Part shown: one piece after another, positions 34,132-51,499 of the stretch
Layout: each line of letters starts with the position of its first letter
How positions within the stretch are numbered: position 1 is the first letter of the stretch
DNA from: Isoetes taiwanensis
Lineage: Eukaryota > Streptophyta > Lycopodiopsida > Isoetales > Isoetaceae
Direction of reading: 5' to 3'
Assembly (NCBI GenBank): GCA_021234155.1
Contig: JAJEKV010000047.1
Span: 316,544-380,543, forward strand
DNA length: 64,000 nucleotides
Position numbers and translations under genes: made by a program
Notes under the pieces: generated by a model
What the model saw: the letters and a program-made list of their open reading frames with translations, nothing else
What the model was told of the DNA's origin: nothing
Database searches by the model: none

Positions 34132-34140
34132 CAATTCATT

Positions 34141-34700
34141 GGCTCAGGATAGTCTTACCGTTTTCGGGATCCCGGGAGGTAAAAACCGTCTCCCAGATCA
34201 CCGCAAGGGCTCGACGGGTCCGTTTCAGACCCCCGCTTCGCATCGACACACGGAGGGGTCCCGTGATAAATCTGGGCCGCCCCGCCCACGCAACACATCA
34301 GGGCCGCGGGTGGTGTTCCCCCCTCAGGGTATCACCAACGCCGATCCCCGCCGGAATCACCGATGCGCTCGATCCCGCCCGGATCACCAGCTCTCGGGGC
34401 CGATATCCGCGCCCCGATATCAGCCGTGGGTGTGATCCCCTCCTCCGGGATCGCCATCGCGTGGCCAATATCGGCCACCCGATATACGCCACCTGATCCC
34501 GGCCTCCGGGATCACCACCATGGCCGACTTCCGGGCGGATCGGGACCCGGGGAAATCTCGACCTCGGGATCGGGGAAAGGACTCGCCGATAACCCGGCCC
34601 GATATCAGCCGGTGGTGAATCCCTCCTCCGGATCACCGATACCCCCGGGCGTGATTACTTCCTCGGGGATCACCGATCGCGACGGCGATTGATCCCCTCC
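34141..34700 (+). repeat. Left terminal inverted repeat of the MULE
   Basis: Aligns with the reverse complement of about 42690-43224. Shared landmarks in order include GGCTCAGGATAGTCTTACC, GGGGTC, CGCCCACGC, GGTGGTGTTCCCC, TATCACCAACGCCGATC, GTGTGATCCCCTCCTC, GGTGAATCCCTCCTC and CGTGATTACTTCCTCGG. It is very G+C-rich, with repeated words of the type TCCTCGGGATCACC. The inner end is approximate because similar words continue to about 35150. Confidence 0.85.
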
Positions 34701-35631
34701 TCAGGATCGCCGTCGCCGGCCGACATCGGATGCCCCGTTATACGCCAGCTTATTAGACCTAGGGATCCCGAAAAGTCCTTCGGTGAAAACCTCCTCCGGG
34801 ATCACCACCGCCTTGACGAAAGCGGGGGCCCACGCGGGTTCAATCGATGCCATTGGTTTGAATTAATGCCCCGACGCCCAGGGTGTCGTCGCCATCCACT
34901 AATGGTGTAACCCGGAGCGGAAAACCGCGGATTATTAAATGCGGGCCCAATGCGAAGTCGCCACGGTGCGGTGGGGATTCGGAGAGGAAGGGAGCACACG
35001 ATGGGTGCGATGGCTATGTCCGAACCGGTAGCGCGCCAAGAACCATTGCCCTTTCGACCGAACTCGATTGGAAAGGGCCCGATTGTCGCCAATCCAGAAT
35101 CGGCCGGCCGTTGCATCCGCCGAGTATTTAAAGGTAAGCGCCATGGACAGATCCGTTGTTAAAGTCTATTTTAGTCTTATTCTAACCGGTTATGTTTTTT
35201 TACGATGGTGGAGGAGTCGATTAACTTCGAAATCAGCCTAAATACCTCCATTAACGAGAACCGGAATGGGAAATGGAAGGAAACTCGGCTTGGCCATTGC
35301 CCCATCGCCTCAAAGATATTGCTCGATTGAATCCACCAAGAGGTTCAATCCTCGAACAAGAAGAGATTAGGGGCGTAATAAAGAGCTAAGGGCGCTTCAC
35401 CACTAAGAATACCCCGCCGCCAGTGGACGAGGCTTCGATTGATGGCCAATGCCACGAAAAAGCGATGATCTAAAGAATGCTAAAAATGGGGATGAGGGGC
35501 CGAGGCCCGAAAAAGTAATATTGAATGTTTTAACGCCAATCCAAGCGGTAGGAACCTAATTAATCGGGGAAGAAATTTTGAAGGACTACTGTGTATGATC
35601 GTGTCAATAAAAATGGCGCTGTTGTGCCTGG

Positions 35632-37640
35632 GTGGATCGCAAAGAAATCCTACAAAGAAGAAGATCGAACCCGGAGAATCATAGGTTCGTGGTGCATCGA
35701 TTATGGCAAAATTGCAAAGCTTCCAGATGCCCCGAGGGTCGAATTCTCAAGAACAAGGCCGAGGTGAGGGTTAGAGATTATGGGAAGATAAGTGTGGAGA
35801 GATCTCTTGACCCCGACTTCAAATTTAGCCACAACCGAGACAAAAACTCGAGGGCAAGGGCAGCAGCTAGAGCGTATGGCGATAGATGAGCAAATCGCCT
35901 CTACTTTTGATGACACGCCCCGAGCCGAAGTTTATAAACCTACAAAAGCGAGAGAAAGGAGGCCACGAAACCAGAAATGCGGTGTAGAGCGGATAAGGGA
36001 AATCAAGGAAAGGATTAGGGGCAAGCATGGCAATTTGGATGAGAAGGATTTGTTTGGTGATTTGAGCTATGAACAGCACCAGTTGGACGAAGACGATGTG
36101 AGTGCGGAGTTTGAAGTCGCAAGATACGCTGATTTTAATTCACCTCCTCCCAAAACCCCAAATTGAATAGCCCAAGTCTACAGGTGACCCCAAGGAAGCG
36201 GACTTTTGTGCAGGCCAGGAGGGATGCGATTTGATGGCTCCAAACCATATTGTGCATGAAGAATCGAGGAGGAGGAGGAGCCCGAAAAAATGTGATGAAT
36301 TGGCTCCCAGACCCGAGCAAGATAAAATGTGGTATTTGTATATTTGGACCCCACTTCTTTGAATCTCTAAAATTATATGATGAGGGATTAGAAATGAGCT
36401 TTGGCGGTTTAGATTTTCTCTGGATTATCCAATTGTGGTTCAAAGTCCTCTGGCGAAGGTGGGCGACAAATCATCCGATGTTGAATTCCACATCTCGAGG
36501 ACGAGGCACTAAAAATTCTCGACTATTCGGTGACCTCGGTATTGAAGATTCAGAGATCGATGCCGACCGCCTAGGAGCCTATTTATTGTATGTGTGTTGT
36601 CTTTGTTTTATTTCTTGCATGGTATGCTAAGTTGAGCTTTAAGGGGTTCTTGCACACTCAATTCCTCACCAAAAACTTATTTGTCATCATGTCTTCCTCC
36701 ACCCTGCCGCTTTTGGCTTTGTTTCTAAATGGCACAAAAACCTCACTGTGGTGCCTACTGACATTCGTCCAAGCTAATTCCAGGATCCCCTTTGGCAAGG
36801 CCGTGTGGAAAATCCAAAGATGCAGTTCTACTACATACCTGGTCAATGCCGTAAATTGGGTTTGGGAAGTGGATTTTTATTGCCTTTTAGTTCGGGTTTG
36901 AATTGATGGCGGCTTGTCCTATGCAAAGGGGTACTTTGGAGCCTGTTCATTTTGGTGGCTGATCCTTTGGCATGCCGTAGAAATTGAAGAAGCCTTGCCC
37001 TTGCATATTGCACCGATTCCTTTGATCCCCTCCATGCTCCAACACGGGTTCATCACTTTGTGAGTGCAAAATTTGGTAACTATTCATTCATAGCCTATCT
37101 TCTAATGCCTTGAATTGCAGGTTTTTAAGTGATGTATTTAGGAGGTGGAGGCACGAGGCATCAGCATTGCATAATGCACCAGTAATCTTGATGGAAGCTC
37201 CACAACAGCACAACAACCAGGATTGTGGCATCTATGTTATTGGTTGTGTGCAGAAATTCATCAGAGAAATCTACATGAAGGATCTGAGATGTGAGTTGTC
37301 TATGTCTTATCTTCTGCCTTTCTTGATCCAGCAAATTTATTTAGTGTCCATTTATAATCATCGTGGTACGATGGTGATCCACAGGACCGGTTTGCCAAAG
37401 AAGACATGGACAATTTGAGGACAAGCTTCAAGGTCATGCTGCAGAAGTTAAGTGACTGCCTAAAAGCAGGAAAATCAACCTTCTACTTGCCCGAGGGTAG
37501 CAACCAATTCGATCGGCCCGTGACCCGTTTGATGCTGAATGGTCCATACAGAAAAAAAACTTTTGATCCTTGTTCAACATGTAAATTTTTGGCTATGATT
37601 GTAAAATATGACAGTTCTCGAATAGTTAATTGATGTGGGA
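35632..37640 (+). CDS. ULP1-like (C48) cysteine protease gene inside the MULE
   Basis: The clearest part is an exon at about 37120-37300. It reads FLSDVFRRWRHEASA, ILMEAPQQ and NNQDCGIYVIGCVQKF, and the Cys codon of QDCG is at 37224-37226. The Q-x-DCG motif is the catalytic Cys site of ULP1/SENP-type SUMO proteases. The preceding exon (about 36920-37060) may hold the core strands (LWSLFILV, where the family has HWSL) and an Asp-containing TDSFDPLH stretch. The start and intron borders are uncertain; an AG acceptor at about 37120 is plausible. Upstream frames at 35632-36166 and 36250-36630 encode a charged N-terminal region typical of transposon-borne ULP genes. The apparent loss of the catalytic His and the frame changes suggest decay. 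Confidence 0.6.
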
Positions 37641-37739
37641 AATAGCTTTTGTTTTTCCTTATCCGGGTTTACTCTGAATCGTCAATCGCATCCCCTCAAT
37701 TCATAAAGGATGTTTGTGAGATGTTTGGGAATTTGAAAC

Positions 37740-39110
37740 ACCTGGGATCCCCAAACTTGAATAGCTTCGGGATCCCGAAGTTTGAACACCTCCGGGATCC
37801 CAGGGAGGCAAATATTAAAACAACCAATGGAAAAGACAAACACAAAAAAAAAACAATTATTGTGGTGATCCCAGACCTTAGAACCATAGAGCCTTAGAAA
37901 AAAAAAAAGGCTCGTCCGCCATCCGGGTGATCCCAGGAGGTGGGGATCACCTATGGTGATCCCCACCTCAGGGGATCACCGGATGGCGGGCGGACCGGGA
38001 ATATAAAACCATTGTACCTAATAGGCGGGGAAAAAAAAAAAAAAGTCCGTCCCGTGATCGGTTATCCCGAGGTGGGGATCACCACTAGTGATCCCGACCG
38101 GGATCACCGAATCAATGAGCGAATAAAATCGACAAGCTTAGAACCATAGAGCCTTGGGAAAAAGGCTCGCCAGCCATCTGGGTGAGGTGGGGATCACCCA
38201 TGGTATCCCCATCTCAGGGATCACCAGGATGGTGACGGAATGGAAAATAAATTGTAGAAAAAAAAAAAAAAAATGTCCGTCCCCGATGCGGTGATCCGAG
38301 GTGGGGATCACCCATGGTGATCCCCATCTCGGGATCACCAGGCATGGCGACCTCATTGTACCTAATAGGCAGGGGAAAAAAAATAAAGTCCGTCCCGCGA
38401 TGGTGATCCCGGATCCCGACCGGGGATCACGAGATCCTGACGAATAAATTCAAAAAGCTTAGAACCATAGAGCCTTAGGAAAAAAAGGCTCGTCGCCATC
38501 CTGGTGATCCCGGGAGGTGGGGATCACCCATGGTGATCCCCATCTCGGGATCACCCGGATGGCGGAGCGGAATATAACAATTGTACCCCACAGGCGGGAA
38601 AAAAAAAAATAAAGTCCGTCTGGTGATCCCGGGTGATCCAGGAGGTGGGGATCACCATGGTGATCCCCATCTCCGGGATCACCGTGATGGCGTGACGGGA
38701 ATATAACTTTCATTATACCTAATAGGCGGGGAAAAAAATAAAAGTCCGTCGCGATCGGTGATCCGGGAGGTGGGGGATCACCATGATCCCCACCTCGGGA
38801 TCAGGATGGCTGGAAAAAAAAGCTTAGAACCATAGAGCCTTAGAAAAAGGCGTCGCCATATATGGTGATCCCGAGGAGGTGGGGATCACCACCGTGATCC
38901 CATCCTCAGGGATCACCAAAGCGAGGGCGTGATTAAATTGATAACCCTAGAACCATTGTACCTTAGGTGAAAAAAATTAAAAATAATCCCTTTGCTTGGG
39001 ATGATCCGGAGGTGGGGATCACCACACGTGATCCCATGCTCCGGGATCACCAGCAGGCGGACGGGATTAAAATGATAACCTTAGAACCATGATACCTTGG
39101 GGGGAAACAT
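37740..39110. repeat. Palindrome-rich tandem array inside the MULE
   Basis: Irregular tandem units, mostly 250-370 bp. Each contains the word AGAACCATAGAGCCTTAG (near 37879, 38139, 38458 and 38826, with decayed forms near 38949 and 39079) and an A-rich run. Each also carries a near-perfect palindrome built from GGTGGGGATCACC and its complement around a CATGG-type centre. Four units also contain ATTGTACCTAATAGGCGGGG-like words (near 38013, 38354, 38580 and 38717). The GATCCCGAGG and GGGATCACC words also occur throughout the element's terminal repeats, so the array was probably built from terminal-repeat sequence. Confidence 0.85.
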
Positions 39111-39119
39111 TTACCATTA

Positions 39120-40123
39120 CATAACATTTACCATTTACCATTACCTTAGAACATTTAAACATTACATTTAGTGATATGCATTGAAAGAAATAAAAGTCAT
39201 GTTCTGATTCTAAGAGTCATTTTCAGGTCCCGAAATTTGGGAATCATGGTGCCTTGCATGAAGCCTCCATGAAGTTCCTTCCAACTCTTCCTTGCTTTCT
39301 TCACCTTATGTTTTCCAAGTTCTATAACAGGCTTCGGTAGGTGACAAGCTAGTACCACAATTCACCTCCAAGGTAAGTTGGGTAGAGTTGATATATTAGT
39401 GCTCGTGCCAACTATGTCATCCATCTTCTCAAGTCTAAAGTCGAGCTGCCTCATGAGAGAATCAGTTGCAACTAAAATGTTAGGATCTTTTTTGAGCCCT
39501 AGACATCACTCTAGTAATTATTCGCCTCCAAGGAGGCGAGTCTTATTCAAGTCCACTTGATCGCTTGTTTGCAAGGGGAGACTCTTCCCCTAGGCGCACT
39601 ATCTCAAGCACCTCCGATCCCGGTCTCCACAACTCTCTTTGCACGGCCAGATTGCTTCAGGTGGTCCATGCCCCACCTATTGTCCCATATTGGGAACCCA
39701 ACACTGTGAAGAGATCTTGATCCTTGTAATTGCCAAGCATTTGCATAACTTTCACTGATGCTTACATAGATTACCCCTTGGCTCCCCAAGGGCAATCACA
39801 ACATGCCCAATTCTTGTGTGCTCCAAAGAACAAAGTACAGACCTCCGCCCAAGAGTGCGCTTCGGTTTGCACTTCAGCCTCGCCCTCCCTCGGTTGGTAA
39901 TTGTGACTTGTTAATCGGCAATTCTCCGGCCTCTAATTAAAGACTCTACTATTTGTTCCTGTGAGGTGTTCACTACAAATCCATGTTCCTTCATAGACCT
40001 AGAACATAGCTATATATCAACCATTTGCAAGGTAAATTTGCAAGGTAAATAGTGATATGTAAATGTTACCTCATATAAGCCATGTGTGTCTCCACATTGT
40101 TAGTGAGAATGTAGAGCAACCGG
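39120..40123. other. Unassigned interior of the MULE
   Basis: Starts with a low-complexity run of CATTTACCATTA words (39110-39170). No further coding motif is recognised. It could include the 3' untranslated region of the minus-strand transposase gene. Confidence 0.4.
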
Positions 40124-41703
40124 TCAATTCTCCACGCCCGAGTGCGCGTTTAGCATATGCCTAGGGCAACTTAAGGCAGCATGCCATGCCTCTATGGCGA
40201 GCATTGGTCTCTTGATTGGAGTGCATGTACATTCTTGTAGCCAATACCCATTCCTGGATGTTCTTAGTCCCTCCTTACTCATGTAGGCCGACAATTTAGG
40301 GTATTGAGGATACTTCCTCACCAACTCTTCCAATCTCTTGATAGCCTCTTTCCTAATGACTTCCCTGTACTCATGACCATACTCATTGTCCCCCACAGGG
40401 ACCCTACGTCTTGTACATTATATTCCTAGCTCCTTGAACATTTCATTTCTATGCACCTTACTCCTTACATTTTTGCTTAGCCACTTAATCCAGGGCTCTT
40501 CTCACATGCCAAATGCATATTTGCACGTGCACGTTTGGGAAAAACCTACAAGTGTTAGTGTTAGAAAGTATGCAAGAAAGTATAACTTGGGGAAAATTGC
40601 CGGGCATCACTTACATTTTTACCGCTTTGATTTCAACATCATCAGCATCGTCAGTTATGATGCAAGAAGGGTGCCAGTCCGGATCATCCTGGCATAATGA
40701 ATCCTTTAGTGCTTTCAACCACTTAGTTATAGCCCTACTTTTTTGAGAATTGGTTATGACATATGCCAATGGCATGCCATTGCAATGGTCATCGAAGGCA
40801 ATGAGTGTAAAAAGATAGTACCTGCATAATTGAAACCAATAGCTCGTCATTGCATCTTGAATTTTAAACCAATAGATGTCATTGCATGATTGAACCTAAC
40901 CGCTATAGCCATTTTAAATGGACTATGGAAAAGATCTAGAATGGAAATGAACTCTTAGAGTGTACCTCTTGTCATTAGTTTTGAAGGTTGCATCCATGCA
41001 AATGGCCCTATTCTTTCCAAATTTCAGCATTGCCTCTCTTTGGATTGGAGTCATCACTCCCAATTGAAGCGTGTCACCATGTTCATACAAGAACACCGGA
41101 CTCTAGATGTTGTTGCACCCACATGTTGATGCTAGTGGGAAGGTCTTCATGTAGCTTCCAAGTGTTTCTAACACTCTTCTCAATGTTGTAAACATCGAAT
41201 CTTCACATGTCATCCCTACACAAACTATCCTTGCCATGCACATCTACTTTAAATCTCCACCTCTCCTGGGTGCATGTTCTTAACACTTAGGTGGGGTGTG
41301 CCAATGCGAGCTTTTCTCTAACCCATTCCCTCAATTCTGTGAGATCCACGGTGCTAGCTTGAATCGATACCTTTCACGCCAACAAATTTACCATGGCAAG
41401 GCTCACCTTGGAGATTTCTATGCTCAAACCCATAATAAGTAACTTGAGAGCATTTCGGGAGAAGGTAGAGTTGCCTAATGGTAAAATGGCATTGGCAGCC
41501 CTACGCACACTCTCACCCCTCTCAACTCTTTTTCTGCGTGTGCGGTTGGCGTGGTCCATCAGCAACCACGTGAGTGTTCAAAGTCTTGTCACGGGGACCA
41601 TATGTGCACCAGATACCTATTTTGAGTGTTCAAAATTAGTGCATGAAAGTAGTGCATGTACATCTAAGAATTAAATATACTTACGCTACAATGTTTTATA
41701 CTA

Positions 41704-41747
<44 letters not shown>

Positions 41748-42017
41748 GTAAATTAGAGGATAGGGTTTTTTAAATACATACCTTTTCATAGTCAAATAAG
41801 AATCCCTGGTTGGCCTCTTTAGCACCCTCTCGGGATTGGAACTCCTTAAGTAGAAGCCGCGCGATGCCACACAATTTCTTTGCTCCAAGAATGAAGTCTT
41901 CAACCCGGTTTGTTGGGAGGTACTTGGTCCACACAAGCATTTCTCCACCTCCCCATCTGAAGGAACTTGGTGCTCTTCCGAAACCAAGGTAGGTTCTTTG
42001 TGGTCGAAAAATGCCAT
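40124..42017 (-). CDS. MULE (Mutator-like) transposase, several exons, frame-broken
   Basis: This is the enzyme expected to cut and move the surrounding element. In minus-strand order: an exon from about 42017 with WTKYLPTNRVEDF and ending GFLFDYEK at a GTATGT donor (about 41789). Next is an exon from about 41630 with CTYGPRDK and a cysteine-containing RGCQCHF/GEPCHG stretch. Then comes a segment reading VYNIEKSVRNTWKL, LGVMTPIQREAML and CMDATFKTNDKR (Asp codon near 40990). The next exon (from about 40827) has YYLFTLIAFDD and CIITDDADD (40654-40637). Then FPNVHVQICIWHVRRA (about 40540-40494), and finally a C-terminal frame at 40396-40124 (KYPQYPKLSAYM). The order DATF, TDDAD, FP..W/H matches MULE transposases. 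At least three frameshifts are needed, near 41950, 41100 and 40490. The start at 42017 (MAFFDHKEP) is a guess. Confidence 0.85.
41707..41747. repeat. (CAA)n microsatellite
   Basis: About 13 uninterrupted CAA units. It lies in what should be the first intron of the transposase gene; read through on the minus strand it would give a cysteine run. Confidence 0.95.
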
Positions 42018-42349
42018 TAGGGGTGACTCCACATGTATTTCAAAGACGTTGGGAATGGGGAAGAAAGGGAACTCGGATATATGTTTTTTACCTCCTAAAA
42101 TTAATCTTAAGCAGATAAATACGTTTTTATCTTCTCCTCCGACCCCAAACCTCCATAGCTGCAAGGGGCCGCTTTTCAACATCCGTCTGTCAGGCATATG
42201 CAGCAGCGCAGAAAAATTCTGGAAGACAAATGTGCGATCCAGGAGGTGGTTTCTCACGCCCCGTGTCCAGATCAGGATGGTTGGTCCCGTGCATGGGCTG
42301 ACATGTTCCCAAAACCGGCGATCATTCCATCGCCCGCTGGCCACCGTCG

Positions 42350-42700
42350 ATTTTCATGCAAATCGTACGCGGGGGATCCCGAGAAAGGAATCACGACCGA
42401 AATGGTGATCCCCGAGGCAGGGGATAACGAGGCGGATATCGGATCGCCGATATCCGCCCTACCGGCGGGTGATCCCGAGGCAGGATAACGCGCCGATATC
42501 GGTCCGCCGATATCGCCGCGGGTGATCCCGAGGAAGGAATCACGTCCGGCGCAGCCTGGGTGATCCCGAGGTCGGGATTTCACGTCTCATGCCGCCTCGA
42601 AGTCGGGTTATGGTGACTTTATGTCGATCAGTGGCGATATCGGTGGCCGAGCATCGCCAACACGCCGATGGCTTTATCCTCGAGGAGGATCACCGCCGCA
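42350..42700. other. G+C-rich subterminal sequence of the MULE
   Basis: Repeated words of the type GATCCCGAGGCAGGGATAACG and GATATCGG. They resemble the terminal repeat but show no clear one-to-one match on the left side. They are subterminal repeats inside the right end. Confidence 0.5.
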
Positions 42701-43224
42701 GATTCTGCGATCCCGAGGAAGTAATCACGCTCGGGTAATTTGGCCATCCCCGAGGAGGGATTCACCACGGCTGATATTCCGGGGCGCCGTTATCGCCGAG
42801 TCCTTTCCCGATCCCGAGGCCTGATTTCCACTCGTCCTTCATGCCTCGAAGTCGCCATGGTGGTGATCCCTACCGGATCGTGGCGATATTCCGTGGTCGT
42901 ATATCGCCACGCCATGGCTTATCCCGTGAGGAGGGGATCACACCCACTACTGAGCCACGGGCGCTTCGAGGCTTGGTGATCCCGAGGGCGGATCAGCGCT
43001 GATGATTCCGGAAATGATCGGCGTTGGTGATACCGAGGCGGGGAACACCACCGGACGCCAGGATGTGTCGCGTGGGCGGACACGCCCGATTTACCTCTGT
43101 GACCCCTCACGGTGTCAAGACTGGCCTAAAGGGGGTCCCAAACGGATTGCCGGAAGCTTTGGCGCGTGATACCGGAGGATCGTTTTTAGGGATCCCCGAA
43201 ACCAGGGTAAGACTATCCTGAGCC
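42690..43224 (-). repeat. Right terminal inverted repeat of the MULE
   Basis: Reverse complement partner of 34141-34700. It ends GGTAAGACTATCCTGAGCC, followed directly by the target-site duplication CAATTCATT. Confidence 0.85.
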
Positions 43225-43233
43225 CAATTCATT

Positions 43234-44565: not shown

Positions 44566-45360
44566 TTCATGGGAATGTTGGACTCTTTTCGCTTGGTGTT
44601 CGGCCCATTTGTTAGGCTGCTCTCCTTCCATTTATTTTCTTCATATGCATCCATTACTTCTTGGTCTCAACGTCTTACCTCGCTTGTGCATACCAAAATC
44701 CATGCCTGGTTGAATTGGTTTGATATCTTGAACTCTGCTTACCTTTGGGAATCTGTTTCTCCGTATAGTAGTTCTTTATGTTATGATGCTAGTGGTTGGG
44801 TCTGGTTGCTTCAACTTTTCTGGCCTTCTATCCACTTCTAGTGAATTAGCATCCCCTACAGCTGGGGAACTTGAAGCCCTCCTTATCTTTCTTAACCAGC
44901 ATGGGCCCTCTTTGAGGTCTTCTCGAGTTATGGCCTTTGGGGATACGCTTAATGCTTTCTATATCCTTAACAAGGGCGGATCCCCCATCTTGGATCTGCA
45001 TTTTCTCTGCTTGCGCATTTATACTTTATGCCATTATAAAATTTCCCTCAAGCCTGCTTGGATTCCTAGAAGTCGAAACCAATGGGCTGATTATCTGTCT
45101 AAGTTACATGATTTTGATGACTATAGTGTTTCTTAGACCGCTTTTCGCATCATTGATGAAGCCTGGGGTCCTCATGATGTTGACCGTTTTGCTAACCTCT
45201 CCAATCACCAGCTTTTCAACTTTAATTGTTGGCACCCTATTCCTGATTGGCCTTTACCCCCTGATGCCTTTTCTCATTCTTGGACTGGTTTCAATAATTA
45301 TTGTTTTCCTCCCACGTCCTTGGTCAGATCTCATCGCTACAAATGACATATGTCTTCATA
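44566..45360 (+). mobile_element. DIRS-like retrotransposon fragment (RNase H and downstream region)
   Basis: One frame ends near 44800 with a YDASG motif, the first Asp region of an RNase H. A second frame (44783-45136) continues with SPTAGELEALLIFL, VMAFGDTLNAFYILNKGG and, at 45087-45125, ADYLSKLHDFDDY. The same frame goes on past a TAG at 45134-45136 with DVDRFANLSN, NCWHPIP and SHSWTGFNNYCFPP, to a TGA near 45345. This order (TDAS, E, D-N, W.P...N..ADYLS, DRFA, DAF..W) is that of DIRS-type tyrosine-recombinase retroelements. The TAG sits where the family often has Trp, so one substitution could explain it. The reverse transcriptase core and the recombinase were not found. Confidence 0.7.
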
Positions 45361-47476: not shown

Positions 47477-50281
47477 CAAATTGCTTAATCTGCTAGAAGG
47501 CCGTGGCCCGTCGGTGAAGGACTTGGGATGAATAAGCATTGATTTGATTGATATGGCCAAATTGTTTTGCAAATCTCAAGGCGCCCCAAGATCCTCCAAA
47601 ATCGATCCAAAATCCAAACTCAGATCGGATCATGACGTCACAGTCAATTCTTTTAGTTTTTTTTTTTTTTTTTTTTTTTTTCTATTTTGTGAGGACACGT
47701 GTTGCCCTCAAATTTTTTCTTGGAACGGAAATAATACATCAAACAAAAAATCAAGCTGACTTATATATGTTGTGATAGGCCTTAACAATTTAGTACTTTT
47801 AATAAATGGAGGTAGGGGGGATTTCATCAAGGGAAAAACTCTGAAATAGCCTTAAAGTGGATGGTGTTTGCATTGTGCTAGTTTCTATTTTTCTAGAATT
47901 CCCTTAAAACTAGACAAGAGGAGGTATAATTGCGAGGGTTATTTTCTTCAAAAGCCTTAACAATTGGGGTTTCTTTGTGGCGTGCAGGCCGTCAAATTGA
48001 GGTCGCTAAGCTTACTAGGATCACTATAAAGTTTTGGAAAAAATCATTTTTATTAGGATCTTAGACCACCTTCAAGCTAAGAATGAACTTGTTTGCTTTC
48101 CAAGAAGCGTCTTGAATGTCTTTGCTACCTTTTGGGAATACTATAACTAGTTTCTTGCTTCCTTATGGTTGAACTTGAGCCTAACAAGTATCCTTAGGAG
48201 CTTCAACACATAATGAAGTTTTGTTCTATGGGGCTATTTGTTCCAAGGATACATTGAATCGTATAAAAGCATTAGAAAATAATAATATGTTTTTAATAAA
48301 GACGACTTTGTGCAGAGATATGACATTTGGGATGCCATTCTGCACCATAGGATTGGAAGCGAGTCTCTTGTGTGCCAAAATGAAATAGGAGAGGGGTCTT
48401 TGCAAAAACTAGAGGGTTTTTGGGCTTTTGCAAAATTCATAGAGATTTTGTTGTCGTCGTCGTCGTCGTCGAGTTTTTTTTGTTGTTGTGAAGTGACAAA
48501 GGTTTCTTTCGCATTCTACAAGAGCCGACATTCTTTGATCGACGAAGGGCTTTAAATTTGACGGAGGGCTTCAGAGCAATCCGAAGGAGAGTATTGAAGA
48601 GATGATCCGGCGATGAACTGCGATGCCTATAGAATGGAACCCTAAACAAACGTCTAGCCTAAGGTGTATTCCCATTAGAAGTCGATATGTATTTTTGAGT
48701 TTGCCACATCAGGATTTTGCTGGTCCAATTTACCAGTTTTTAAACATTTCATTCCCATTAAACCGGCTCGATGTCACCAGATCTCAAAATCGTTCAATGG
48801 AAAGATCTATGCCGTCAAATTATGGACAAGTGCTATACGAAATCCTAACAAGAAGGATGGCGTGTTGCTTGCTACATGATAAAGCAAGGGGGCGATTTCA
48901 ATAACTCAGAAGCTCCACAATCCATCTAAAATGGAAGTCTAGGACCCTGCCATGTAAGCAAAATTCAGTGCCGGAAAACGAAATGGGAATGCACCTGCCA
49001 CAGTTAACGATCGTTTTGGCCTAATAGGGACACACTCTAACCCGGGCTCTTTACTTGTTGAAGGGAACTCATTTTGCAATGTAAGGGATAGTCACATGGT
49101 GCCACGAAAATGCACGTCGCATAAAAACACCTTCTATATTGTGTATATAGCCATATACTAGTACATTTAGTATATTCTCTTCCAACATATGTCCATGTTG
49201 GCAGAAACGTGAGTATAAAGGGAGCTCATCAATATGATTGCCATCACAAGTACACGCCACATATAGGAAGTGAATCTATACATCGGAATAACTTTCCCAG
49301 TCAGAATCTATAATGTGTTAGAAACACCGATGTTCGCTTTGTTTTATATGCATAAGTAGTTGAAAGATTATTCAAGCAGAAGACAAATAAGTAAAAGAGG
49401 TGAGGAAACAGAGAGGGAAGGTGGATAAAGAGATCTATGGCAGCCTTTACGAAATTCCATGATGTGCAGACTGAGAAAGTGGCGATGAGTTGCAGATGGA
49501 AACTGAGGGGCACGAATGGCACTTGCACAGATGATGCTGGATGCTGGGGATGTATGGAGACGAGTTAGAAGAGTAGGTGAAACATAGGGAGTAAAAAATG
49601 AAATGTGCAAGCCTAGTGGAAGAGGGAGCTTCTAGGAGACAAGAAAAAAAAGGGACCATGTGCCAAAGCAAGGCAGCAAAGGGACAAAGGCAAAAGGGGC
49701 CCTTGAAGCAAATCATTGGAAAAGGATCCATGCAAATAATTGCAATCCAAATAGAAAACAATAAAAAACCAAAGGAAACCAGGGTTTAGGGTTTTATACC
49801 ATTTCTTTTCTGAGCAGGGCAAGATGTTTAAGCAAAGCACCGACCATGGCCAAATGATACAAGGAAGACTGTGTCGGAATAAGAACAATCGTTACGCCGC
49901 AAAGGGGCACCATGTACTCAGACGCGCCAGGCTATGGCAGTTACAAAACATGGTCGGAAATCGAGGGATTCCTTCTCCGCCGTCACCCCTCGTCTTACGC
50001 TGCAACACAGAGAGTATACAAGCACAACCCACATCTCCAATTTTTACGTAGAAAATATTCATCCCTCTCTGGAGTTATACAGCCCATTTTATTCTTTCAT
50101 CCTTCTGATCCAATTCGCTTGCTTTCTGCATAAAAATAGCTTGAGTTCCACTTGGTTTTATTCTCCAGCAGCATGGAAAAGCTCTGCATCTGTGCATTTT
50201 AATACCCAAGCTGCAGGCTTTGGTAGCGTGTGCTTGCCTGCATTGTTCAGGGCTAAAAAGGATTGGGGTTTGTTTAGAAAA
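47477..50281. other. Intergenic stretch upstream of the bHLH gene
   Basis: A T-run of about 22 bases lies at 47659-47681 and a (GTC)n run of about six units at 48452-48471. Frames on both strands are short and motif-free. The last few hundred bases should hold the bHLH promoter and 5' untranslated region, but I see no clear TATA box. Confidence 0.45.
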
Positions 50282-51499
50282 ATGGAGTTCTTCATGCCCG
50301 ACCTGGATTATTCTCCCATAGCTTCTCCTTCTCCAAGCTGTGATACTAATGTGGATGGAGAATGTGGGTTCCTTGGTGAACTACCTGATGAGCTCTTTCA
50401 ATTGCTAGAGGAAATCCCTGGCTCTTATTTAGGAAGTACTTTGACATCTGAGCATGCCTCTCCAGTCAGACAAATGGGTGCAAAAAGTTCATTCATCATT
50501 TTTGATGAAAAGGAGCCTTGTAAGGAAACACAATCAAAGGATCTCAAGCCTAAAGACTCCTCCGAGGTGCTGAAAAGGGTGGCTTGTGTGCTTGAAGAAC
50601 ATACAGATGCTTCTGATAAGAAAAATGCTCAGCAACAGACTAAGCAGACAAGAAAAAAAGGCCTGAAACGAGAAAGAGAACCATTAGAGGGGAAAGATGA
50701 TCACATTCTAAGAGAGAGGCAAAGAAGAGATGATATGAGCAGCAAATTCTCTATGTTGGAGTCTCTGCTTCCATGGAGATCTAAGGCAATATACAATTTT
50801 AGTTTACACCAACTTTTTTGTTTGTCATCATTTTTTTCAGTTTGTAATTGGATCTTCGTGTGGATTTTTGCAGAGAGATAGGACTGCAATAGTGGATGAT
50901 GCAATTCAGTTTGTCACTGACATGCAGAAGACCCTCCATCGTCTAGAAAAGATTGCCGAAGAGAACAGGCATTCAAAAGAAGTGAGAAAGATAGAGACCT
51001 GTTCGAAAAGCTATAGTTTAATCAGGTGCCATGAGAACAAGATGCAGGTATCTCGTATCAGTCCAAGTAAGAACCCTGCTGGATTTCTTAGACCAAGCCT
51101 GCCACCAAAGACCAGGCTTCCATTACAGTGGCCCAACATGGCACCTCCTCTAGAGACCACCTTGCCCCCTGCTGGTCCTCGAGAGCTCAACGTACACATA
51201 GAGTCCCCAGATCAGGTGATAATTGAGATTGGTTGTAATCCGAGACCAGCATTGTTGACAAACATATTCAGAGCACTGGAAGAATTATACTTGGACATTT
51301 CTCAGTGCAACTTTATCAAAACAAGACCAGAGATATTGTGCATCATCGTTGCTAAGGTAGAAATTTCTCATGTTTAATAAGCAGTATTGACCTTGCTTAT
51401 ACTAATTATTTTGTCCCTTCTCTTTAGCAGCATCATCCTGGTTGTTGTTTCTCCATCGAAAGAATTACCAAGATACTGAGATCTGCAATTTGTTATTGA
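50282..51499 (+). CDS. Basic helix-loop-helix (bHLH) transcription factor with ACT-like C-terminus
   Basis: Three exons: 50282-50785, 50874-51356 and 51428-51499, giving 352 residues. The start is the first ATG after a long leader (MEFFMPDLDYSP). Residues about 140-210 form the bHLH domain. Its basic region HILRERQRRDD has the His-Glu-Arg pattern of E-box/G-box binders, helix 1 is KFSMLESLLP, and helix 2 is TAIVDDAIQFVTDMQKTL, running into a coiled stretch. The C-terminal part (ELNVHIESPDQVIIEIG, LLTNIFRALEELYLDI) looks like the ACT-like dimerisation fold common in plant bHLHs. Intron 1 interrupts the loop and uses a GC donor (CTAAG|GC...CAG). Intron 2 is GT-AG; without splicing, translation would end after six more codons at 51377. 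It is a nuclear regulator; the subgroup is uncertain. This is the most intact gene in the window. Confidence 0.9.

What the first reader, a model, noticed from the sequence alone, without database searches (positions are those of the whole stretch)
34132..43233. Complete 9.1-kb MULE with exact 9-bp duplication, long inverted ends and two convergent genes
Both ends, both target-site duplications, a transposase and a ULP1-like protease are all visible, so the element boundaries are known to the base. The identical outermost 19 bases and perfect duplication suggest a fairly recent insertion, although the genes already show frame breaks. It may define a new MULE family in its host and offers a clean case of protease cargo on a transposon.
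Basis: partly seen in the sequence, partly recalled or inferred. Interest (0 to 1): 0.75.

Follow-up and report, generated by a model that had tools for sequence, protein, structure and literature searches.

The report
Plant MULE with zinc-finger–SUMO-protease partner gene
A complete plant Mutator-type transposon, one of hundreds in what is almost certainly the quillwort Isoetes taiwanensis, carries a transposase gene and, facing it, a gene for a zinc-finger SUMO-type protease, plus one short DNA motif packed only into its non-coding parts, an arrangement that resembles the Arabidopsis transposons which switch off their own silencing.

Summary
The element is 34141-43224 (9,084 bp), flanked by CAATTCATT twice, with identical 19-bp tips, ~570-bp inverted repeats, a MULE transposase (-) and a ULP1-like gene (+) converging on it. 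Two empty-site relatives carry a single CAATTCATT. The tip occurs 428 times in the host genome (control 0), and 12 of 14 further checkable copies have perfect 9-bp duplications. By size the host matches Isoetes taiwanensis. Two readings need correction. Tip identity is a family constant, so it does not date the insertion. The frame breaks may partly be nanopore assembly error. The protease is not captured cargo but an inherited second gene, always convergent with the transposase, under purifying selection, with its catalytic residues kept and a C2H2 finger upstream. New here: the motif GGGATCACC fills both inverted repeats and the array between the genes (42 of the window's 43 octamers), is absent from both genes, and switches in all three blocks to GGAATCACC in a subfamily with 64% transposase identity. 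Best mechanism (inferred): a VANC-like, motif-targeted anti-silencing system run by the zinc-finger-ULP1 protein. ULP1-carrying MULEs are already known: new variant of a known kind.

The parts
34132..34140 (.). left target-site duplication CAATTCATT
   Evidence: single copy at two empty-site relatives
34141..34718 (+). left terminal inverted repeat, starting with tip GGCTCAGGATAGTCTTACC
   Evidence: tip 428 times genome-wide
35205..37546 (+). second gene: (damaged) C2H2 zinc finger - helical region - ULP1/C48 protease; frame broken in this copy
   Evidence: tblastn with family pieces; Pfam PF02902
35614..35772 (+). remnant of the C2H2 zinc-finger region of the second gene (ligands not all in frame here)
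   Evidence: intact CX4CX3YX5LX2HX4H in relatives L014, L036
36937..37059 (+). ULP1 exon holding the WSL...D part of the active site (His position altered in this copy)
37060..37120 (+). 61-nt intron (GTGAGT...TGCAG) whose removal joins ITL to FLSD; matches in relatives show an in-frame TGA at this junction
   Evidence: sequence; TGA in family matches
37121..37286 (+). ULP1 exon with PQQHNNQDCG (oxyanion Gln and catalytic Cys)
37860..39110 (.). array of palindromic units built on GGTGATCCC/GGGATCACC between the 3' ends of the two convergent genes
   Evidence: motif 31 observed vs 0.2 expected; RNA fold z = -17
39272..42008 (-). MULE transposase gene (N-terminal part 42008-41613; 41500-40956 with first Asp; 40820-40069 with second Asp; SWIM 39836-39672; C-terminus 39620-39272), frame broken in this copy
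   Evidence: tblastn with family pieces; PF10551, PF04434
42663..43224 (-). right terminal inverted repeat
43225..43233 (.). right target-site duplication CAATTCATT

Best explanation
SHOWN: this is one copy of a high-copy, long-TIR MULE lineage that inserts with 9-bp duplications. It carries two convergent genes, a DDE/SWIM transposase and a second gene that combines a C2H2 zinc finger with a ULP1-type SUMO protease. One motif, GGGATCACC, often in inverted pairs, is confined to the two TIRs and the array between the genes. INFERRED: the zinc-finger-ULP1 protein (or a complex with it) binds this motif in all non-coding blocks of its own family and strips SUMO from silencing factors there, keeping the element's own copies demethylated and mobilisable. 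That would be a sequence-specific anti-silencing system working like VANC/VANDAL in Arabidopsis. In subfamilies the motif and the protein change together, so each subfamily frees mainly itself. The window copy itself probably encodes no functional protein and would be mobilised in trans, if at all. The stated confidence is for the whole mechanism; the identity (a MULE with a convergent ULP1 partner gene) is about 0.97 certain.
For: Ends, duplications, empty sites. Conserved two-gene layout: all four divergent relatives first tested carry both genes facing each other, a fifth (L059) likewise; of 100 transposase matches, 54 have a ULP1 match downstream within 8 kb in convergent orientation and none in any other arrangement. 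Selection on the protease: dN/dS 0.16-0.21 for the ULP1 exon between subfamilies, transposase 0.09-0.17, and H, D, Q, C of the active site kept in the better-preserved copies. Zinc finger CX4CX3YX5LX2HX4H open in L014 and L036, traceable in the 81% and 64% subfamilies. Motif: 42 of 43 octamers of the window lie in the element; TIRs and middle strongly enriched, both genes empty. Concerted switch: L045, L046, L059 have GGAATCAC in all three blocks and no GGGATCAC; at the TIR tips genome-wide the switch is 118:0 in one subfamily and 113:0 in the other direction. Known parallel: VANC proteins bind short motifs in tandem repeats of non-coding VANDAL regions that change between relatives (PMC5735166, PMC10398659), and some VANC-type genes carry ULP1 (KIU; PMC13317346).
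Against: No binding, expression or methylation data. The motif could equally be read by the transposase, or be spread by homogenisation alone. The zinc finger is a weak profile match (E=0.038, below cut-off) and one finger alone rarely specifies 9 bases. Only one clear motif switch was seen. No sequence comparison with VANC proteins could be made, so homology to VANC is untested. The element has long TIRs, unlike VANDALs.
Confidence: 0.42

Rival explanations
1. The motif is the transposase's own binding site, multiplied through the TIRs; the array between the genes is TIR material copied inward and kept similar by recombination. The ULP1 gene helps transposition itself, for example by removing SUMO from the transposase or repair proteins.
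For: The motif begins near the tips of both TIRs and switches together with the tip sequence of the subfamily. A role of Ulp1 in transposition has been proposed for other elements (PMC2836005). Non-autonomous 428- and 454-bp derivatives keep the ends.
Against: The middle array lies 3-4 kb from either end, has its own ~130-bp repeat unit and is kept as a separate block in every subfamily examined, which end-binding does not require.
Confidence: 0.3
2. The array is a bidirectional terminator or hairpin-RNA source between two convergent genes, and its similarity to the TIRs reflects neutral homogenisation; no protein reads the motif.
For: It sits exactly between the two gene 3' ends and folds far better than shuffles (-479 vs -317 kcal/mol, z = -17).
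Against: Does not explain why the same 9-mer fills the TIRs, why both genes are free of it, or the same one-base switch in three separate blocks.
Confidence: 0.2
3. The ULP1 gene is captured host cargo (Pack-MULE style) without function for the element.
For: MULEs often capture host gene fragments (PMC2528002), and the gene is broken in this copy.
Against: Present in all five divergent relatives tested, always convergent, purifying selection, active-site residues kept, ITL/FLSD splice junction traceable.
Confidence: 0.05
4. The two ends belong to different insertions, or the structure is an assembly artefact.
For: The assembly is nanopore-based and noisy in CpG-dense repeats (PMC8566536).
Against: Perfect duplication, two empty sites with the exact junction, and the same full structure at many independent loci.
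Confidence: 0.01

Closest known systems
KI-MULE / KAONASHI (KIU) elements of Arabidopsis
   Same: MULE with a ULP1-domain gene in reverse orientation to the transposase (PMC2528002); KIU genes are described as VANC-type anti-silencing genes (PMC13317346)
   Different: those are non-TIR MULEs of angiosperms; here long TIRs, a C2H2 finger in the ULP1 gene, an array between convergent genes, and (by inference) a lycophyte host
VANDAL21/VANDAL6 with VANC anti-silencing proteins
   Same: a short motif accumulated in non-coding regions, free of coding regions, differing between related families; an additional gene besides the transposase (PMC5735166, PMC10398659)
   Different: different motif, long TIRs rather than degenerate ones, protease domain present; no binding or demethylation shown here; homology to VANC not tested
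ULP1-containing MULEs of melon, rice, grapevine, maize, hydra and lancelet
   Same: MULE transposase with ULP1 domain, in both orientations, some with TIRs (PMC2528002, PMC2836005)
   Different: no shared non-coding motif or zinc finger reported in the passages read
MuDR of maize
   Same: long-TIR MULE with 9-bp duplication and a second gene beside mudrA (general knowledge; PMC6446971)
   Different: second gene here is a ULP1 protease, not mudrB; PF03108 was not found in the transposase pieces scanned

Membership tests
Mutator-like elements (MULE superfamily) | about 9-bp target-site duplication | tested here: met
   window copy plus 12 of 14 further copies perfect at 9 bp, one with a shared 10-mer, one 8 of 9; empty sites
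Mutator-like elements (MULE superfamily) | DDE transposase of the MULE domain type | tested here: met
   PF10551 6.5e-21 in relative L045; 5e-4, below cut-off, in the window copy
Mutator-like elements (MULE superfamily) | long terminal inverted repeats (TIR-MULEs) | tested here: met
   578/562 bp, 75% gapped identity
KI-MULE / KIU | ULP1-domain gene antisense to the transposase | tested here: met
KI-MULE / KIU | non-TIR ends | tested here: not met
   long TIRs
VANDAL/VANC system | family-specific short motif accumulated in non-coding regions | tested here: met
VANDAL/VANC system | encoded protein binds the motif and removes DNA methylation | not testable with these tools
   needs binding and bisulfite data
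VANDAL/VANC system | sequence homology of the second gene to VANC | not tested
   no VANC sequences held; Pfam found only PF02902 and a weak C2H2
Pack-MULE (host gene capture) | recently captured host fragment, not conserved between subfamilies | tested here: not met

The most novel reading that the evidence does not exclude
A DNA-transposon lineage of a lycophyte runs its own sequence-specific anti-silencing system: a zinc-finger-guided SUMO protease reads a 9-base address written into both ends and the middle of the element, and address and reader change together between subfamilies, independently of, or long before, the VANC system of Arabidopsis.
Probability: 0.25. Interest if true: 0.78.

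Novelty: new variant of a known kind. Interest (0 to 1): 0.5.

Why it matters
ULP1 proteases recur in MULEs and other transposons, but their role is unknown (PMC13317346 says so for KIU). Here the protease gene carries a candidate DNA-reading domain, and the element carries a candidate address, with hundreds of copies in at least two motif types in one genome. That makes the question 'what is the ULP1 gene for' directly testable by binding and methylation assays. If the VANC-like reading holds, sequence-specific anti-silencing by transposons would extend from angiosperms to lycophytes.

Tried and rejected
1) Dating the insertion from tip identity: rejected, the tip is invariant in the family. 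2) Dating from TIR divergence: rejected; TIR differences range from 1% (L033, L052) to about 25%, and private changes depend on local CpG density. 3) Explaining all noise as nanopore error: left open; L052 has 434-bp TIRs 98.6% identical at GC 0.63, so GC-rich sequence can be right. Comparing two contigs that looked like duplicates (L054/L055) and two copies on one contig (L013/L056) did not settle it: identical or nearly so in some stretches, ~10% apart in others. 4) Strict zinc-finger pattern in all copies: open in only two; elsewhere found by tblastn in pieces. 5) dN/dS on the last ULP1 exon: synonymous sites saturated. 6) Known structures for the transposase: no match; ULP1 best matches SENP7 (2e-4) and Ulp2 (0.04). 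7) Structure prediction was not run: its stated rule admits window proteins and loci from certain tools, the window genes are broken, and the relatives came from another tool.

Full report
THE OBSERVATION. The element is present exactly as described. CAATTCATT stands at 34132-34140 and 43225-43233; between them lies a 9,084-bp element (34141-43224) whose first and last 19 bases are exact reverse complements, GGCTCAGGATAGTCTTACC. The inverted repeats align over 578 and 562 bp with 75% gapped identity. A query made by joining the two flanks around one duplication finds two sites elsewhere in the genome (C964, 94% over 391 bases; C907, 90% over 308) that read straight through a single CAATTCATT. 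The insertion therefore went into a copy of an older repeat.

HOST. The assembly searched as G000 has 1,658,258,908 bases in 1,110 contigs. The published Isoetes taiwanensis assembly is 1,658.30 Mb in 204 scaffolds plus 909 contigs, made from Nanopore R9.4.1 reads, Illumina polishing and Bionano maps (PMC8566536). The host is inferred from this match, about 0.9 certain; no name was given.

FAMILY. The tip occurs 428 times with at most one mismatch; the reversed control occurs 0 times. In one search, ten further copies have perfect 9-bp duplications (L009, L010+L011, L012, L013, L014, L015+L016, L033, L034, L035, L036). Two others are near-perfect: L027 shares the 10-mer ATTCTAAGTG and L030 matches 8 of 9. 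One copy (L031+L032) with a damaged tip has no duplication, and the right tip of L028+L029 could not be placed; these two are left out of the count of 14 in the summary. Two members of a diverged subfamily (L045, L046), with the related tip GGGTGAAAATATC..TTACCC.GGTTTTGG, have perfect duplications TTCGTAGAC and AACTATGTG; that tip occurs 475 times at up to two mismatches, control 0. L033 (428 bp) and L034 (454 bp) are short derivatives with the same ends.

GENES. Relatives with less damage show a MULE transposase (PF10551 6.5e-21, PF21056 2.3e-9, SWIM 9.9e-5) and a ULP1/C48 protease (PF02902 4.6e-10, above cut-off). The protease is closest to SENP7 (2e-4) and Ulp2 among solved structures. HW...D...PQQ.N..DCG, the His-Asp-Gln-Cys active site, is kept in the better-preserved copies of all subfamilies. 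A 61-nt intron at 37060-37120 joins the two ULP1 exons in the window copy (sequence). Upstream in the same gene is a C2H2 zinc finger of canonical spacing, CX4CX3YX5LX2HX4H, open in L014 and L036 and traceable in the 81% subfamily (L052, L053) and the 64% subfamily (L045, in part L059). As a profile match it is weak (E=0.038), so it rests on spacing, position and conservation.

THE PROTEASE IS NOT CASUAL CARGO. All four divergent relatives first tested (transposase 81% or 64% identical) carry both genes facing each other; a fifth, L059, does too. Of 100 transposase matches listed, 54 have a ULP1 match within 8 kb downstream in convergent orientation and none has one in any other arrangement (from the truncated lists; a lower bound). 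dN/dS between subfamilies is 0.09-0.17 for the transposase piece T1 and 0.16-0.21 for the measurable ULP1 exon. The gene has been inherited and selected together with the transposase.

THE MOTIF. GGGATCACC and its complement GGTGATCCC, often as inverted pairs, make up the array between the genes (37860-39110) and recur through both TIRs. Of 43 GGGATCAC octamers in the 64-kb window, 42 lie in the element. In the window copy the left flank block, ULP1 gene, middle, transposase gene and right flank block hold 4, 0, 31, 0 and 7, against 0.05-0.21 expected per block from first-order Markov resamplings. Other copies give the same pattern; the few counts inside 'gene' blocks of L015+L016 and L044 are probably block-boundary errors of my script. 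In the 64% subfamily (L045, L046, L059) every block uses GGAATCAC instead and GGGATCAC does not occur at all. At the tips genome-wide, the window family has GATCCC 118 times and GATTCC 0 times; the other subfamily has GATTCC 113 times and GATCCC 0 times. One base has thus switched in concert in three separate non-coding blocks.

HOW IT MOST LIKELY WORKS. In Arabidopsis, VANC proteins bind short motifs that accumulate as tandem repeats in the non-coding parts of their own VANDAL families, differ between relatives, and induce loss of DNA methylation (PMC5735166, PMC10398659). Some VANC-type genes carry a ULP1 domain of unknown role (KIU; PMC13317346). The element here has the same logic: a second gene with a candidate DNA-reading domain and a SUMO protease, and a family-specific motif confined to non-coding blocks. 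I infer that the protein reads the motif and relieves silencing of its own family. Shown: anatomy, conservation, motif distribution and switch. Not shown: binding, demethylation, SUMO cleavage, expression. The chief rival is that the transposase reads the motif. A second rival, terminator or hairpin RNA, draws support from the strong fold of the array (z = -17).

Identical tips do not mean a recent insertion, because they are a family constant. Frame breaks cannot simply be read as decay. Across ten copies, private substitutions have a transition/transversion ratio of 0.70-0.74, while shared ones have 1.17-1.31. Single-base indels abound, and private deviations rise near CpG sites, from about 2.5% to over 7%. 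That pattern suits unpolished nanopore sequence in methylated repeats, but the 98.6% identical GC-rich TIRs of L052 argue against error everywhere. Raw reads are needed.

KNOWN AND NEW. ULP1-carrying MULEs are known from Arabidopsis, melon, rice, grapevine, maize and animals (PMC2528002, PMC2836005). In the library searched I found no report from lycophytes, which is weak evidence of absence. The zinc-finger-ULP1 combination, the central array sharing its motif with both TIRs, and the concerted switch are what seems new: a new variant of a known kind.

Noticed in passing
G000, second ULP1 group (PF02902 hits with 91-aa open frames, e.g. C1045:20542594, C974:17926777): Dozens of near-identical ULP1-like matches with a 91-aa frame suggest another high-copy element carrying ULP1.
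   Followed up: no
L054 (C12) and L055 (C943): Two copies are identical over the last ~300-600 bp compared yet about 10% apart with many 1-bp indels just upstream: a sharp change that looks like patchy assembly quality or recombination.
   Followed up: partly
L033 (C952:8402004-8402431) and L034 (C1019:2556895-2557348): 428- and 454-bp non-autonomous derivatives of the same MULE with perfect 9-bp duplications; L033 has 180-bp ends 99% identical.
   Followed up: partly
G000:C1030:7609177-7623790: Three transposase copies of the 64% subfamily in the same orientation about 7 kb apart: a tandem cluster.
   Followed up: no
window 49883-51374 (+): Probable host bHLH transcription factor gene: HLH domain (3.9e-5) followed by a weaker ACT-like match, about 7 kb from the element.
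   Followed up: no
window 44732-45133 (+): RNase H-like fragment of a retroelement (PF13456, 0.008, below cut-off) just downstream of the MULE.
   Followed up: no
L045, L053, L036, L014 zinc-finger regions: Finger positions before the first His differ between motif types (YSRKVDLENH / YNKKVELENH with GGGATCACC; YSKKWDLEIH with GGAATCACC), in line with co-change but from one contrast only.
   Followed up: partly
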